Positions 8,779 to 45,751 of a DNA stretch of 52,858 nucleotides are shown here, one piece after another. The notes under the pieces were generated by a model, which was given only the letters and a program-made list of their open reading frames with translations, was not told the DNA's origin and searched no databases. The number at the start of each line of letters is the position of its first letter. The first letter of the stretch is position 1. Origin of the DNA: Flavonifractor sp. An112 (lineage in GTDB: Bacteria; Bacillota; Clostridia; Oscillospirales; Oscillospiraceae); the NCBI RefSeq assembly GCF_002161085.1, contig NZ_NFLU01000014.1, positions 1 to 52,858 on the forward strand, written 5' to 3'. The position numbers and the translations under genes were made by a program.

Positions 8779-9252
8779 ATGGCAGAGGAAACCGGCCTGC
8801 GGCAGGTGGTGGAGACCTATGGGAACATGGTGTACCGCCTGGCCCTGGCCCAGACCCACAGCGGCCACGACGCCGACGACGTATTTCAGGAGGTCTTTCT
8901 CCGCTATCTCCGCGCCGCCCCGGACTTTCGGGAGGAGGAGCACCGGAAGGCCTGGCTGCTGCGGGTGACGGTAAACTGCTGCAAAAAATTCCACACCTCC
9001 TTCTGGCGGCGGCATACCACGGCCCTGTCCGAGGCCATCCCCGCCCGGACGGAGGAGGAGGGGGAGCTGCTCCAGCTGATAGAGGGCCTGCCGGAGAAGT
9101 ACCGGGCGGTGCTCCACCTCTACTACTACGAGGGCTACGCCACCGGGGAGATTGCGGCCATCCTGGGCCGCAGTCCCAACACCGTCCGCAGTCAGCTGGC
9201 CCGAGGCAGGGCCTTGCTGCACGACGCATGGAAAGGAGCGGAAGAGCTATGA
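8779..9252 (+). CDS. ECF-type RNA polymerase sigma factor
   Basis: The 157-residue product is a compact two-domain sigma-70 protein. Region 2 reads NMVYRLALAQTHSGHDADDVFQEVFLR and region 4 carries the helix-turn-helix near YEGYATGEIAAILGRSPNTVRSQLARGR. Both the size and the lack of regions 1 and 3 fit group 4 sigma factors. The ATG at 8779 follows GGGGGGAGGG. Its stop overlaps the next start (ATGA at 9249-9252), so it is translationally coupled to a membrane protein that is most likely its anti-sigma factor. Confidence 0.9.
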   Translation: MAEETGLRQVVETYGNMVYRLALAQTHSGHDADDVFQEVFLRYLRAAPDFREEEHRKAWLLRVTVNCCKKFHTSFWRRHTTALSEAIPARTEEEGELLQLIEGLPEKYRAVLHLYYYEGYATGEIAAILGRSPNTVRSQLARGRALLHDAWKGAEEL

Positions 9253-10325
9253 CGGAAGAGAACTATCGGGCGCTGTTTGACCGGGCGTCCCCCAGCCGGG
9301 ATCTGGTGGAGGATACCCTGGCGGCGGCGGAGCGGCCCCGGCGGAGGGGCATCCCCGCCAAGCGGCTGGCGGCCGCCCTGGTGTGTCTGGCCCTGGTGCT
9401 GGGGGTGGGCAACTATCAGGCCCTGGCGGCGGGGGTCCAAAAGATCATCCGGTTCTTTGCCGGTACCGGGGCGTCGGAGACCCCCGTCATGGTGGTGGAG
9501 GAGGCCGACCAGTGGACTGAGGGGGATTGGCTGTGCCAGCTGGACGGGGTGAGCCAGGGGGAGTGGCTGCTGCTGGAACTCTACCTGGTGAGCCCGGAGT
9601 TGGAAGAGCATCAGCTGGCCACCCGGAAGCTCCAGGTCTACGCCGGGGACACCCCCCTGGAACAGGGGTGTCTGGTCTACTCGGAGTGGCTGCCCTACAA
9701 CGGCTTTGCTCCCCAGGGCCAGGCGTGGGTGTCCCTCTCTGGCCTGGACTGTGGGCCGGAGGTGGCCTGGCGGGAGGATGGTTACCAGTCCCGGGTCCAC
9801 ATGGCCTTCCTCTATCGGCTGCCGGAGGAAACGCCCCGGGAGGTGACCTATGAGCTGCTGGATCTGGAGGCGGGCGGGTCCCGCACCGGATTGCTGGAAC
9901 TCACCTCGGCGGAGACCCTGGCTGCCCACACGGACAGCCGGACCTTTGAGGAGGGCACGGTTACTGCCCTGGTCAGCCAGGATGGACGGCAGCTGTCGGT
10001 ATACGCCCACCAGGAGGAGAACGACGACGGCCTGCTGCTGACGGGGGCTGCTCTCTTCCACCATCAGGTCACCTTTATCGGGGCCTCCGGGGAGCGTTAC
10101 CCCGACGCGGGAGAGGGCTTCCGCAGTTTCACTTCCGGCCATGTGAACGTCCAGCTGGCCTCTGCCCCCGACTGGGTGGAGGAACCCATTGTGGCGGTGG
10201 AGATCGGGGCGATCAGGCTGGTCTATGAGCATGATACCTGGTGGGACGGTCCAGGAGGAGGCATCGTCCGAACCCAGGATGACGTGGTCTATGGGGACCT
10301 GAACTGGGTCATTGATCTAATATAA
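9249..10325 (+). CDS. Membrane-anchored anti-sigma-like protein (DUF4179-like)
   Basis: The product has 358 residues. A short cytoplasmic N-terminus (1 to about 36) ends in basic residues (RPRRRGIPAKR), then one transmembrane helix spans about 38-60. The roughly 300-residue extracellular part contains predicted beta-rich segments. The coupled ECF sigma gene and the single-pass topology fit the clostridial sigma/DUF4179 anti-sigma arrangement. I see no zinc anti-sigma motif (HxxxCxxC) in the short cytoplasmic part, so sigma binding would have to use a different short helix. The signal it senses is unknown. Confidence 0.7.
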   Translation: MTEENYRALFDRASPSRDLVEDTLAAAERPRRRGIPAKRLAAALVCLALVLGVGNYQALAAGVQKIIRFFAGTGASETPVMVVEEADQWTEGDWLCQLDGVSQGEWLLLELYLVSPELEEHQLATRKLQVYAGDTPLEQGCLVYSEWLPYNGFAPQGQAWVSLSGLDCGPEVAWREDGYQSRVHMAFLYRLPEETPREVTYELLDLEAGGSRTGLLELTSAETLAAHTDSRTFEEGTVTALVSQDGRQLSVYAHQEENDDGLLLTGAALFHHQVTFIGASGERYPDAGEGFRSFTSGHVNVQLASAPDWVEEPIVAVEIGAIRLVYEHDTWWDGPGGGIVRTQDDVVYGDLNWVIDLI

Positions 10326-43570: not shown

Positions 43571-43606
43571 GAGGCGCCTTCCTTCTGGGGAGGCGCCTCG
43601 TTTTTT
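43571..43606. terminator. Bidirectional terminator
   Basis: GAGGCGCCT (43571-43579) pairs with AGGCGCCTC (43591-43599), then TTTTTT. It lies between the convergent kinase gene and the serpin gene. Confidence 0.8.
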
Positions 43607-45062
43607 ATGTGGGCTGGTTGACTACTCCGGCAAAGAGGGGTTGGCCTGCGGCGCTGGTGAGGACAAAGAGGAAGGGACGGTCCAGAGTGAAGTCCACCTC
43701 GTCCTCCGGCATACCGGAACCCCCCATTGCCATGGCGGTGAAGGCGGCGGCGGTGACGCCCTCCTCATCCACCGCCACCCGGGCGGCGTGGGTGGCCTGA
43801 GTGACAGAAATGTCCTCCACAGCTTCCGTCATGGGAGTGAAGTCGGACACCGCCGGGTCAAACACGTCGGTGATCCCCATGGCCTGCAATCCCTCAATCA
43901 GATCCAGCTGGCCGGACACGTCAAATTTGGGCATGGACAGGTTGACTCTGAGGTACTTCTGGTTTTCCCATTCCCCGTTGGAGAGCAGGAACTCCATGAC
44001 CTCCGGGTCGTCCAGCAGCTGATCTACGCTCACTCCTTCGTCGGGCAGGACCATCCACAGGGTACCGCCGTACAGCACGGACTTCCCCACGGCGGAGAAC
44101 TGATCCCCCCAGCAGTAGGTGTTGGAGGAGGAGCTGTGCATGAAGTCACAGGTCACGTCCCCGCCGGGGGCGTGGAACGTTTCGGGGGCGGTGTTGTCCG
44201 GGTTGAACTCCTGGGACCACCGGCCCTGATAGTACACGGTGGTGGCCAGGGCCAGCACCGTCTCCGGGTCCAGGCTCACCTGGTCCGCAGCCTCCTTCAG
44301 CAGCCCGCCGGTCTGGTCGTTGAGCCAGGTCTGGAGGGCCTGGTCCAGCTCCGCCGACCCCATCTCCCCCTGGTAGGAGGAGGCGTAGTAGGTGTCGGCC
44401 AGGGTGTTCAGGGTGGACTGGTTGAAGGGTACGTCCTCATTGAGCCACAGGGAGGAGGCCAGGATACTGGTCACCGCTCCGTCGTGGCAGTAGTTGGCGT
44501 TCCACAGGGCCCTGGCCTGGGTGCGCAGGGCCTCGATACCGTCCTGGCCCAGCAGGTCCAGGATCTGCTGTCGGCTGCTGCCGTCGGTAAGCTCGGCCAG
44601 CATCCCAAGGGCGAAGTAGATGTTCAGGGGGGAGCAGACCTTGTTCTCCGTACCGCTGTCCCCCAGGAACTGGCGCAGGGCGGCGGTATAGTACCCCTCC
44701 AGGCCGCTGTCGTAGCCCTCGGGCTGGTCCAGCCGGGCCTTCTGGTCGGCCCGCCAGGTGTCGTAGTCGGCGCTCCAGCGGTCGGAATCCAGGGAACCGT
44801 CGGGGTTGAGATAGTCCATCTCGCTGGGGTAGGGGGGCACCTCCGGGTACTCCGCCACTGCCAGAGCGTAGGCCTGGCCCGTCAGGGGGCCGCCGCCCGG
44901 CCACAGCACGATGCCGATGACGATGGCGGCGGCTGCCGCCACGGCGGTAAGCCCCATCCACAGGGGGCGGCGGTGAGGCGCTTTTTGGGGCGGTTTGTCT
45001 GCCTGAGCCACCAGCTCCGGGTCTACGTGCTCCAGGCTGTCCAACAGATCATCCGCTTTCAT
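43605..45062 (-). CDS. Membrane-anchored serpin, sigma-factor partner
   Basis: The 485-residue product has a short cytoplasmic N-terminus (1 to about 34, KADDLLDSLEHVDPELVAQA), one transmembrane helix (about 35-54), a linker, then a full serpin domain. Serpin marks include NKVCSPLNIYFALGML, the hinge with G435, and DRPFLFVLTSAAGQPLFAGVV. Aligned to antithrombin numbering, the reactive loop reads EEG-V-T-AAA-F-T-A-M-A-M-G-G-S449 | G-M-P-E, so P1 is probably Ser. P9 is Phe, where small residues are usual. The gene overlaps the upstream sigma gene (ATGA). The position matches an anti-sigma factor whose external domain has become a protease trap (inference). Confidence 0.85.
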   Translation of the reverse strand: MKADDLLDSLEHVDPELVAQADKPPQKAPHRRPLWMGLTAVAAAAAIVIGIVLWPGGGPLTGQAYALAVAEYPEVPPYPSEMDYLNPDGSLDSDRWSADYDTWRADQKARLDQPEGYDSGLEGYYTAALRQFLGDSGTENKVCSPLNIYFALGMLAELTDGSSRQQILDLLGQDGIEALRTQARALWNANYCHDGAVTSILASSLWLNEDVPFNQSTLNTLADTYYASSYQGEMGSAELDQALQTWLNDQTGGLLKEAADQVSLDPETVLALATTVYYQGRWSQEFNPDNTAPETFHAPGGDVTCDFMHSSSSNTYCWGDQFSAVGKSVLYGGTLWMVLPDEGVSVDQLLDDPEVMEFLLSNGEWENQKYLRVNLSMPKFDVSGQLDLIEGLQAMGITDVFDPAVSDFTPMTEAVEDISVTQATHAARVAVDEEGVTAAAFTAMAMGGSGMPEDEVDFTLDRPFLFVLTSAAGQPLFAGVVNQPT

Positions 45063-45628
45063 ACCGTAAATCCCTCCTTAATCAGGTGGTCCCGCAGCCG
45101 CTGCCGGGTGCGGAACAGGGTGGTTTTCACCTTGCTCTGGGTGAGCCCGTACCGCCGGGCGATGGCGGTGATGGAGTCGAAGAACCAGTACCGCCGCAGG
45201 AAAAGGTTCCGGGCCTCCTCAGGCAGGGCCTTGAGAAAGGCGTTCAGGCTCTCGCCCAGGGCCAGCGCGTCCACCAGCGCCTGGGTGTGGTCGGGGCCGG
45301 GAAGGCAGTCCTCCAGCTCCTGAGTGAGAGCGGTGAGCCGGGCCAGCTGCCGCCGGCGGGTGAGGGCCCGGCAGCGGTCCAGCACCGTGTGGCGCATGAG
45401 CCGGGCCAGGAAGGGGAAGAGGTAATCCCTGGGCTGGTGGGGCGGGATGCTGTCCCAGGCCAGCAGGTAGGCGTCGTTTTCGCACTCCTCCACCGTCAGC
45501 CGGTCGGGCAGCAGCCGGAAGCCCAGCTGCCGCAGGCGGCTGCCGTACTTGTCCGATGCCGCCCGGATGCCTCCCTCGTCCCGGGTCAGAAATAAGGTCA
45601 CAATCTGGGCGTCCTCCACGGTACTCAC
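45059..45628 (-). CDS. Sigma-70 family RNA polymerase sigma factor, serpin-linked
   Basis: The 189-residue product has a region-2-like part (SDKYGSRLRQLGFRLL, then NDAYLLAWDSIPP, then LFPFLARLMRHTVLDRCR). Region 4 is a C-terminal helix-turn-helix (LRRYWFFDSITAIARRYGLTQSKVKTTLFRTRQRLRDHL, read in parts). It resembles ECF-like sigma factors. The start is GTG at 45628 with AGGAG close upstream. Its stop overlaps the start of the serpin gene. An ECF-type promoter candidate lies upstream (45668-45696), so it may activate its own transcription. Confidence 0.85.
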   Translation of the reverse strand: MSTVEDAQIVTLFLTRDEGGIRAASDKYGSRLRQLGFRLLPDRLTVEECENDAYLLAWDSIPPHQPRDYLFPFLARLMRHTVLDRCRALTRRRQLARLTALTQELEDCLPGPDHTQALVDALALGESLNAFLKALPEEARNLFLRRYWFFDSITAIARRYGLTQSKVKTTLFRTRQRLRDHLIKEGFTV

Positions 45629-45667
45629 TCCTCTCCTGTGGGCTGGTGAAAAGGCCTTTCACCCCTG

Positions 45668-45696
45668 TCAGCGAGTTGGGAGGGGGAAAGGTTACA
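45668..45696 (-). promoter_or_regulatory. Possible ECF-type promoter of the sigma/serpin operon
   Basis: Minus-strand TGTAAC (45691-45696), followed by CTTT as in several ECF -35 elements, a 17-nt spacer and CGCTGA (45668-45673). The -35 match is good; the -10 is weak. Confidence 0.45.
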
Positions 45697-45718
45697 GTCA
45701 GAACTAATTTTTATGGGA

Positions 45719-45748
45719 AAAAGGGGCCTGCGGCGGCAGGCCCCTTTT
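45719..45748 (-). terminator. Terminator after guanine deaminase
   Basis: A 13-bp stem (45719-45731 with 45736-45748) and 4-nt loop, followed by T's on the minus strand, just past the stop at 45752. Confidence 0.85.
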
Positions 45749-45751
45749 GGT

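What the first reader, a model, noticed from the sequence alone, without database searches (positions are those of the whole stretch)
43605..45696. Sigma factor gene overlapping a transmembrane serpin: possible protease-sensing signalling pair
Directly seen: a sigma-70 family gene whose stop overlaps the start of a gene encoding a short cytoplasmic helix, one TM helix and a complete serpin domain with a recognisable reactive loop (P1 probably S449). Established: such coupled genes are normally sigma plus membrane anti-sigma, and serpins change shape irreversibly when cleaved. Inference: a host or microbial protease attacks the loop, the serpin snaps shut, and that change (or loss of the protein) releases the sigma factor. 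The ECF-like promoter upstream would then amplify the response. The cytoplasmic part has no zinc anti-sigma motif, so sigma binding would be by a different short element.
Basis: partly seen in the sequence, partly recalled or inferred. Interest (0 to 1): 0.82.

Follow-up and report, generated by a model that had tools for sequence, protein, structure and literature searches.

The report
Serpin-tipped anti-sigma switch in gut bacteria
Some gut bacteria appear to have built a gene switch from a protease-trapping protein (a serpin) fixed in their membrane, whose inner end likely holds back the partner that turns the serpin gene on, which would let the cell sense and answer protease attack.

Summary
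An ECF-type sigma gene (45059-45619/45628, minus strand) overlaps by ATGA a gene (43605-45062) for a 485-aa protein: about 33 cytoplasmic residues, one TM helix, a full serpin domain with an inhibitory-type hinge. It recurs: of 240 scorable serpin ORFs in the loci I read, 105 follow a sigma gene directly (78 of 192 after thinning). A short N-terminal motif occurs in 104 of those 105 and in 3 of 135 others; outside serpins it was hit 8 times, each right behind a sigma. The N-terminus tracks the sigma sequence, the serpin domain does not once the N-terminus is held constant. Two different sigma/N-terminus types carry serpins, both in the window's own genome. A TM-helix XAA motif (77 of 78) and an RseP homologue fit regulated intramembrane proteolysis. 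Each operon's promoter pattern has one perfect match per genome, at that operon (7 of 7; 12 of 12), suggesting a closed loop: serpin spent, sigma freed, serpin remade. Sigma binding and protease triggering are inferred, not shown. It works like RsiV/sigmaV but is not of that family. My paper searches found no description of it.

The parts
45059..45619 (-). ECF-type sigma factor gene (186 aa from GTG 45619; ORF open from GTG 45628, 189 aa)
   Evidence: TIGR02937 above cut-off
43605..45062 (-). transmembrane serpin gene, 485 aa, start overlaps sigma stop (ATGA)
44964..45062 (-). residues 1-33: cytoplasmic N-terminus, proposed sigma-binding element
   Evidence: two short helices at low confidence
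44907..44963 (-). residues 34-52: TM helix with XAA motif (VAA 41-43), proposed ClpXP tag after site-2 cleavage
   Evidence: (A40 invariant in 40 rows)
44865..44873 (-). residues 64-66 AYA: weak candidate site-1 in the stalk; may be only structural
43611..44675 (-). serpin domain, residues 130-484
43686..43766 (-). reactive-centre loop region, residues 433-459; hinge EEGVTAAAFT, presumed P1 S449
45670..45696 (-). conserved promoter TGTAACCTTT-N13-CGCT, proposed autoregulatory ECF promoter
45717..45749 (-). hairpin with U run behind the upstream same-strand gene, so the sigma-serpin pair looks like its own operon
   Evidence: -24.6 kcal/mol, z -5.32
43571..43609 (.). hairpin between the convergent genes at the end of the two-gene operon (T run on the + strand; weak as a terminator for the - strand)

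Best explanation
The transmembrane serpin is the anti-sigma factor of the sigma encoded just upstream. Its short cytoplasmic N-terminus holds the sigma at the membrane; its outside part is an inhibitory-type serpin that acts as both sensor and weapon. A protease (elastase-like specificity guessed from small P1 residues) attacks the loop; the serpin traps it and snaps into the relaxed form; this exposes the stalk to a first cut, RseP cuts the TM helix near the XAA motif, ClpXP removes the N-terminus and the sigma is freed. The sigma fires mainly or only its own promoter, so spent serpin is replaced until intact serpin again titrates the sigma. Shown by sequence comparison: the gene pair, the sigma-linked N-terminal motif, the hinge, the XAA motif, the promoter pattern. 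Inferred: sigma binding, protease triggering, the cuts and their order, promoter recognition. My split: anti-sigma role about 0.85; protease on the loop as the signal about 0.6-0.7 given that; closed loop about 0.5 given both.
For: Motif versus sigma adjacency: genus/family set 50 both, 108 neither, 3 motif only, 0 sigma only; named set 54 both, 24 neither, 0 motif only, 1 sigma only; 15 of 255 ORFs dropped for lack of upstream sequence; the sets share at least 7 identical sigma-linked serpins. After thinning to 192: 77, 3, 1, 111. Scan of 7434 ORFs: 120 motif hits, 117 right behind a sigma, 8 of those not serpins. Partial Mantel, 64 pairs: sigma~N-terminus given serpin 0.46 (p 0.0005); sigma~serpin given N-terminus 0.03 (p 0.28). 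Two sigma/N-terminus types in one genome. Sigma linkage needs 25 changes on the serpin tree, 15 forced by starred branches. Stop and start overlap in 50 of 52 pairs. Hinge pattern found in 77 of 78 sigma-linked serpins. XAA in 77 of 78, shuffled cores mean 32.9, maximum 45. RseP homologue 217.2 bits, cut-off 147.55. One perfect promoter match per genome at the operon: 7 of 7, 12 of 12. RsiV precedent (PMC5014341, passages).
Against: No binding, cleavage or expression data. Sigma and N-terminus are neighbours on the DNA, so joint inheritance alone gives part of the Mantel signal; and the serpin domain also tracks the N-terminus with the sigma held constant (0.30, p 0.001). Hinge and loop are much the same in serpins without a sigma, so nothing in the loop is special to sensing. 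P14 is Val or Cys in most sigma-linked ones, not the usual Thr/Ser. The AYA stalk motif also occurs in unlinked serpins (12 of 52 with the YP motif, against 41 of 75). The promoter patterns were strict, built from these operons and searched only in genomes chosen for having them; a looser pattern found a second site in the own genome and its reversed control found four. The window's promoter type was found in 12 of 87 first-type upstream stretches, ten of them close relatives. Of 10 non-serpin partners of first-type sigmas seen, the motif models caught 7.
Confidence: 0.6

Rival explanations
1. The serpin is an anti-sigma, but its signal is not a protease on the loop: the metastable serpin fold reports another envelope stress (bile, heat, acid, unfolding) or binds a ligand.
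For: Sibling sigma partners in the same genome carry other outside domains (RsgI_M in L169 and L181, DUF4179 and DUF5643 in L182, no Pfam match in 6 of 10), so the scaffold is not tied to proteases. Serpins are metastable (established).
Against: The inhibitory hinge pattern is kept in 77 of 78 and P1 is mostly a small residue; a pure stress sensor would not need them.
Confidence: 0.22
2. The serpin is only cargo: the sigma drives a membrane serpin, the N-terminus is a plain anchor, and another protein restrains the sigma.
For: Eight loci have sigma, then another TM protein, then a lipoprotein serpin, where the serpin looks like output (L034, L040, L048, L057, L060, L132, L138, L152).
Against: In those loci it is the middle protein that carries the N-terminal motif (6 of 8 above 8 bits), not the serpin. 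Five serpins with what looks like a TM anchor and no sigma (L208, L214, L232, L261, L268; my reading) score under the motif line. The N-terminus tracks the sigma. No further gene lies in the window's operon.
Confidence: 0.13
3. Chance neighbours or mere translational coupling with no functional tie.
For: ATGA overlaps are common in bacterial operons (established).
Against: 105 cases, repeated changes of linkage on the tree, motif association.
Confidence: 0.02

Closest known systems
RsiV / sigmaV of Bacillus subtilis (lysozyme receptor; PMC5014341, passages seen)
   Same: ECF sigma with a TM anti-sigma whose outside part binds and inhibits the very enzyme it senses; the sigma raises transcription of its own operon; release by regulated intramembrane proteolysis. 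For the present pair these are predictions.
   Different: Outside domain here is a serpin, an irreversible single-use trap, with no Pfam match to any other outside domain; trigger and cuts untested.
RsgI / SigI of Clostridium thermocellum (PMC12203970, passages seen; PMC3413522, passages)
   Same: A cytoplasmic end and TM helix joined to varied sensor domains; XAA motifs in the TM helix read by ClpXP after RseP.
   Different: No RsgI family among this protein's Pfam matches (RsgI_M is found in siblings L169 and L181); the sigma is ECF-type, not SigI. In the passages seen, sensor types named are CBM, glycosidase, peptidase-like, PA14 and unknown, not serpin.
Gut and cellulosome serpins: siropins of Eubacterium siraeum (PMC5127057, passages); Clostridium thermocellum dockerin-borne serpins (PMC12484212, passages)
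   Same: Serpin fold in anaerobic Clostridia; siropins inhibit neutrophil elastase and proteinase 3, cellulosome serpins subtilisin-like proteases.
   Different: The passages seen name no sigma partner. A 2021 survey (PMC8233489, sections 12 and 15 read) already classed some prokaryotic serpins as membrane anchored, but found no systematic trend of location and says nothing of sigma factors (0 occurrences of 'sigma').
Short-N-terminus sigma partners in the same genomes (grouped here: L048, L057, L060, L071, L132, L138, L152, L178)
   Same: Directly behind a sigma, similar N-terminal motif at 8 bits or more, one TM helix.
   Different: Outside parts are not serpins.

Membership tests
Serpin (PF00079) | full-length domain above curated cut-off | tested here: met
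   206.4 bits, cut-off 27; fold match
Serpin (PF00079) | hinge of an inhibitory serpin (E-x-G-x-x-A-A-A-x-T) | tested here: met
   EEGVTAAAFT; P14 Val instead of Thr/Ser; consensus recalled
Serpin (PF00079) | covalent protease trapping with loop insertion | not testable with these tools
   needs purified protein
ECF sigma factor | sigma70-ECF superfamily score above cut-off, regions 2 and 4 | tested here: met
   TIGR02937 48.2 vs 42.9; region 4 passes, region 2 below its Pfam cut-off
Zinc / class I anti-sigma domain | zinc-binding His/Cys motif in a multi-helix anti-sigma domain | tested here: not met
   residues 1-34 hold no cysteine; only two short helices; definition recalled
RsgI | RsgI N-terminal and central domains | tested here: not met
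   no RsgI family among Pfam matches to E 0.1
RsgI | XAA motif in TM helix for ClpXP | tested here: met
   VAA 41-43; 77 of 78 relatives; function not tested
RsiV | RsiV-type lysozyme-binding domain | tested here: not met
   Pfam matches to E 0.1 are Serpin and a sub-threshold DUF3040 over residues 8-53
RsiV | sensor is inhibitor of the sensed enzyme | not testable with these tools
   suggested by the serpin hinge
Regulated intramembrane proteolysis substrate | site-2 protease present in genome | tested here: met
   G000:C5:10683-11753, 217.2 bits
Sigma-adjacent short-N-terminus partners (grouped in this report) | N-terminal motif hit directly behind a sigma gene | tested here: met
   (the window protein was itself in the training set)

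The most novel reading that the evidence does not exclude
A bacterial signalling class in which a suicide inhibitor is its own sensor and its own product: the serpin's single-use chemistry is read as a gauge of protease load, its consumption frees a sigma that fires only the sigma-serpin operon, and the pool is restored. It was put together repeatedly, on two clearly different sigma/N-terminus types, in one group of gut Clostridia. To my knowledge it would be the first serpin-based signal transduction in a prokaryote.
Probability: 0.35. Interest if true: 0.9.

Novelty: new variant of a known kind. Interest (0 to 1): 0.8.

Why it matters
[quoted passage not shown] A serpin wired to a sigma factor would be a direct counter-example and gives a testable role: sensing proteases in the gut, such as elastases. 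It would extend RsiV's 'sensor equals inhibitor' logic to proteases and give a natural, irreversible protease biosensor.

Tried and rejected
Zinc anti-sigma domain: rejected (no cysteine in residues 1-34). RsgI or RsiV membership: rejected. Own subtilisin as target: no S8 match in the own genome; two Trypsin_2 (HtrA-type) matches over cut-off are present, so an own target is not excluded. Natural sigma-serpin fusion ORF: none among the 255 serpin ORFs. My automatic lipobox rule misfiled 13 sigma-linked TM serpins as lipoproteins; I replaced it by the motif test. The window's promoter pattern across 87 first-type upstream stretches: 12 hits, ten in close relatives, two doubtful, so that promoter is not general; the second type's pattern was found in 17 of 21. 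L027 (motif 6.5 bits, no sigma): tblastn found no sigma remnant. L229: sigma but no motif within 90 residues of the TM helix. AYA as signal-peptidase site: not specific. Sliding windows of the sigma: the N-terminus tracks region 4 (partial up to 0.45) more than the first stretch (0.20), only a hint. Start codons were picked as those nearest to a four-base overlap, so the 41 of 52 at exactly -4 is biased upward; 30 of these are ATG by my count of that output. Second structure job not used. Paper searches listed no paper on a serpin-sigma pair; in most only listings and abstract starts were seen; passages or sections were seen.

Full report
WHAT IS THERE. On the minus strand of the window an ECF-type sigma gene (45059-45619, or from 45628) runs by an ATGA overlap into a 485-codon gene (43605-45062). 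The second protein has about 33 cytoplasmic residues, one TM helix (34-52 in the model) and a serpin domain from residue 130 to 484. The 50 fold matches shown are serpins. The hinge EEGVTAAAFT is of the inhibitory type; counting gives P1 S449. A hairpin with a U run lies behind the upstream same-strand gene and the downstream gene is convergent, so this looks like a two-gene operon.

HOW COMMON. Serpins were found in 19 of 20 genomes of the genus, 133 of 250 sampled of the family and 165 of 391 sampled of the class. I read 160 loci of the genus and family (30, 100 fetched; one search's list was cut and not every listed place was fetched) and 80 named loci (the best 80 of 413 relatives, found through the loop motif). 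In the genus and family set 52 serpins follow a sigma gene directly; in the named set 56; at least 7 are the same gene in both sets. Stop and start overlap in 50 of 52; 41 by four bases, a figure biased upward by how I picked starts. The own genome has two such pairs of different type (window and L002). Named carriers include Flavonifractor, Pseudoflavonifractor, Oscillibacter and Evtepia records, and records titled Lachnospiraceae, Blautia or Acetatifactor whose naming I did not check. In 50 class-level loci (30 top-scoring, 20 hand-picked, so not a random sample) none of 52 serpin ORFs had a sigma directly upstream; two start too near a contig end to tell (L289, L295), three had weak sigma-like hits 565-694 bases before the TM segment, and only my two sigma models were used.

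TWO KINDS OF SERPIN. By an automatic rule 95 of 112 unlinked serpins of the genus and family set with enough upstream sequence have a lipoprotein signal. Those behind a sigma have a cytoplasmic end of roughly 30-45 residues and an uncleaved TM helix. The N-terminus of the first sigma type reads roughly L-x2-AIG-x-IDD-x-LIE-x-A, that of the second M-x2-YKRAND-x-L-x-P-x4-VERAV. Models of these, trained on the genus and family pairs, gave: genus/family 50 motif and sigma, 108 neither, 3 motif only, 0 sigma only, 9 dropped; named 54, 24, 0, 1, with 6 dropped (drops have too little upstream sequence). Of the three motif-only cases two are second serpins of a tandem behind one sigma (L070, L093) and one (L027) is a weak hit with no detectable sigma. 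After thinning at 78% identity: 77, 3, 1, 111. Five serpins with what looks like a TM anchor but no sigma (L208, L214, L232, L261, L268) score under the motif line.

THE MOTIF GOES WITH THE SIGMA, NOT WITH THE SERPIN. Across 7434 ORFs of the loci then held and the window, the models hit 120 at 8 bits or more: 109 serpins behind a sigma (most of them training sequences or their kin), 3 serpins not, and 8 non-serpins, all 8 behind a sigma. Eight loci carry sigma, then another TM protein, then a lipoprotein serpin (in L152 with some further space between). The middle protein passes the motif line in 6 of these 8; L034 and L040 do not, nor does the partner in L233, so 7 of 10 first-type partners pass. 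In the own genome one search listed 45 sigma-like matches (some are pieces of one gene); of 28 loci looked at, 15 by my reading have an overlapping or abutting TM partner, the two serpins included. Of 10 partners scanned, two match RsgI_M, one DUF4179 and DUF5643, one DUF4179 below its cut-off, and six nothing in Pfam at E 0.01. In 64 thinned first-type pairs (84 before), distances of sigma and N-terminus agree (r 0.49; 0.46 with the serpin held constant, p 0.0005, the least 2000 permutations allow), while sigma and serpin do not once the N-terminus is held constant (0.03, p 0.28); the serpin also tracks the N-terminus with the sigma held constant (0.30, p 0.001). Closeness on the DNA may add to both. 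On a FastTree tree of 192 serpin domains the label 'unlinked' needs 25 changes, 15 of them forced by starred branches; the two tandem second serpins count as unlinked there and may add two. So serpins have moved onto or off the sigma scaffold repeatedly.

HOW IT LIKELY WORKS. (a) Anti-sigma: inferred from the above. (b) Inhibitory serpin: my hinge pattern was found in 77 of 78 sigma-linked serpins and 99 of 114 others; P1 is mostly Ala, Gly or Ser. Small P1 residues suggest elastase-like proteases; this is a guess. Siropins, serpins of another gut Clostridium relative, inhibit neutrophil elastase and proteinase 3 (PMC5127057, passages). (c) Proteolytic release: the TM core has an XAA motif in its first 15 residues in 77 of 78 sigma-linked serpins, against a mean of 32.9 and a maximum of 45 in 500 shuffles of the same cores, and 44 of 114 unlinked ones. 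In RsgI such motifs are read by ClpXP after RseP (PMC12203970, passages). The own genome has an RseP homologue. The first cut is unknown; AYA at 64-66 is a weak candidate. (d) Output: upstream of the window-type operon TGTAACCTTT and CGCT keep their spacing while the spacer differs. With one mismatch allowed, each of 7 genus genomes chosen for having the operon shows the pattern there, perfect in all seven, and there is one further one-mismatch hit. A looser pattern gave two hits in the own genome, one of them the operon, and four for the reversed control. For the second type GCAACC-N16-GGTATKAT has exactly one perfect match in each of 12 genomes chosen likewise, at that operon; nine one-mismatch hits elsewhere compare with eight for the reversed control. 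GGTATKAT also resembles an extended -10 of the housekeeping sigma, so this second promoter may be mixed. So each sigma's clearest target is its own operon, and the simplest circuit is a closed loop that remakes a single-use inhibitor as it is spent.

WHAT IT RESEMBLES. RsiV of Bacillus is the best functional match: an anti-sigma that binds and inhibits lysozyme and thereby frees sigmaV, which raises its own operon (PMC5014341, passages). The present protein is not of that family. Cellulosome papers that mention both serpins and anti-sigma factors treat them apart in the passages seen. In the searches made I found no description of a serpin paired with a sigma factor; the library lacks most subscription papers and the 2021 ECF reclassification paper.

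CONFIDENCE. Gene pair and motif association: very high. Anti-sigma role: high, by comparison only. Protease trigger: more likely than not. Closed loop: open.

Noticed in passing
window 8797-10325 (+) (L176): A second sigma with an overlapping TM partner in this same window; partner of 358 aa with no Pfam match at E 0.01.
   Followed up: partly
own-genome loci L172, L173, L176, L178, L179, L183: Six of ten sigma partners scanned match no Pfam family: a set of unmapped outside domains on similar scaffolds.
   Followed up: no
L162: A sigma followed by a protein with a Cys/His N-terminus like a classical zinc anti-sigma, so both kinds live in this genome (likeness recalled).
   Followed up: no
L034, L040, L048, L057, L060, L132, L138, L152: Sigma, another TM protein, then a lipoprotein serpin, suggesting serpin as output of a sigma circuit.
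   Followed up: partly
L070 and L093: Two TM serpins in tandem behind one sigma, both with the N-terminal motif.
   Followed up: no
L033/L122 and L036: Serpins in tandem: more than one domain in a long ORF with repeats that look like S-layer homology (L033, L122; likeness recalled), and neighbouring serpin ORFs (L036).
   Followed up: no
L301-L307, L313-L320: Class-level serpins with about 210-290 residues before the serpin domain that I did not identify.
   Followed up: no
L294, start of the ORF: DLNGDG-like stretch resembling a dockerin repeat before a serpin (resemblance recalled).
   Followed up: no
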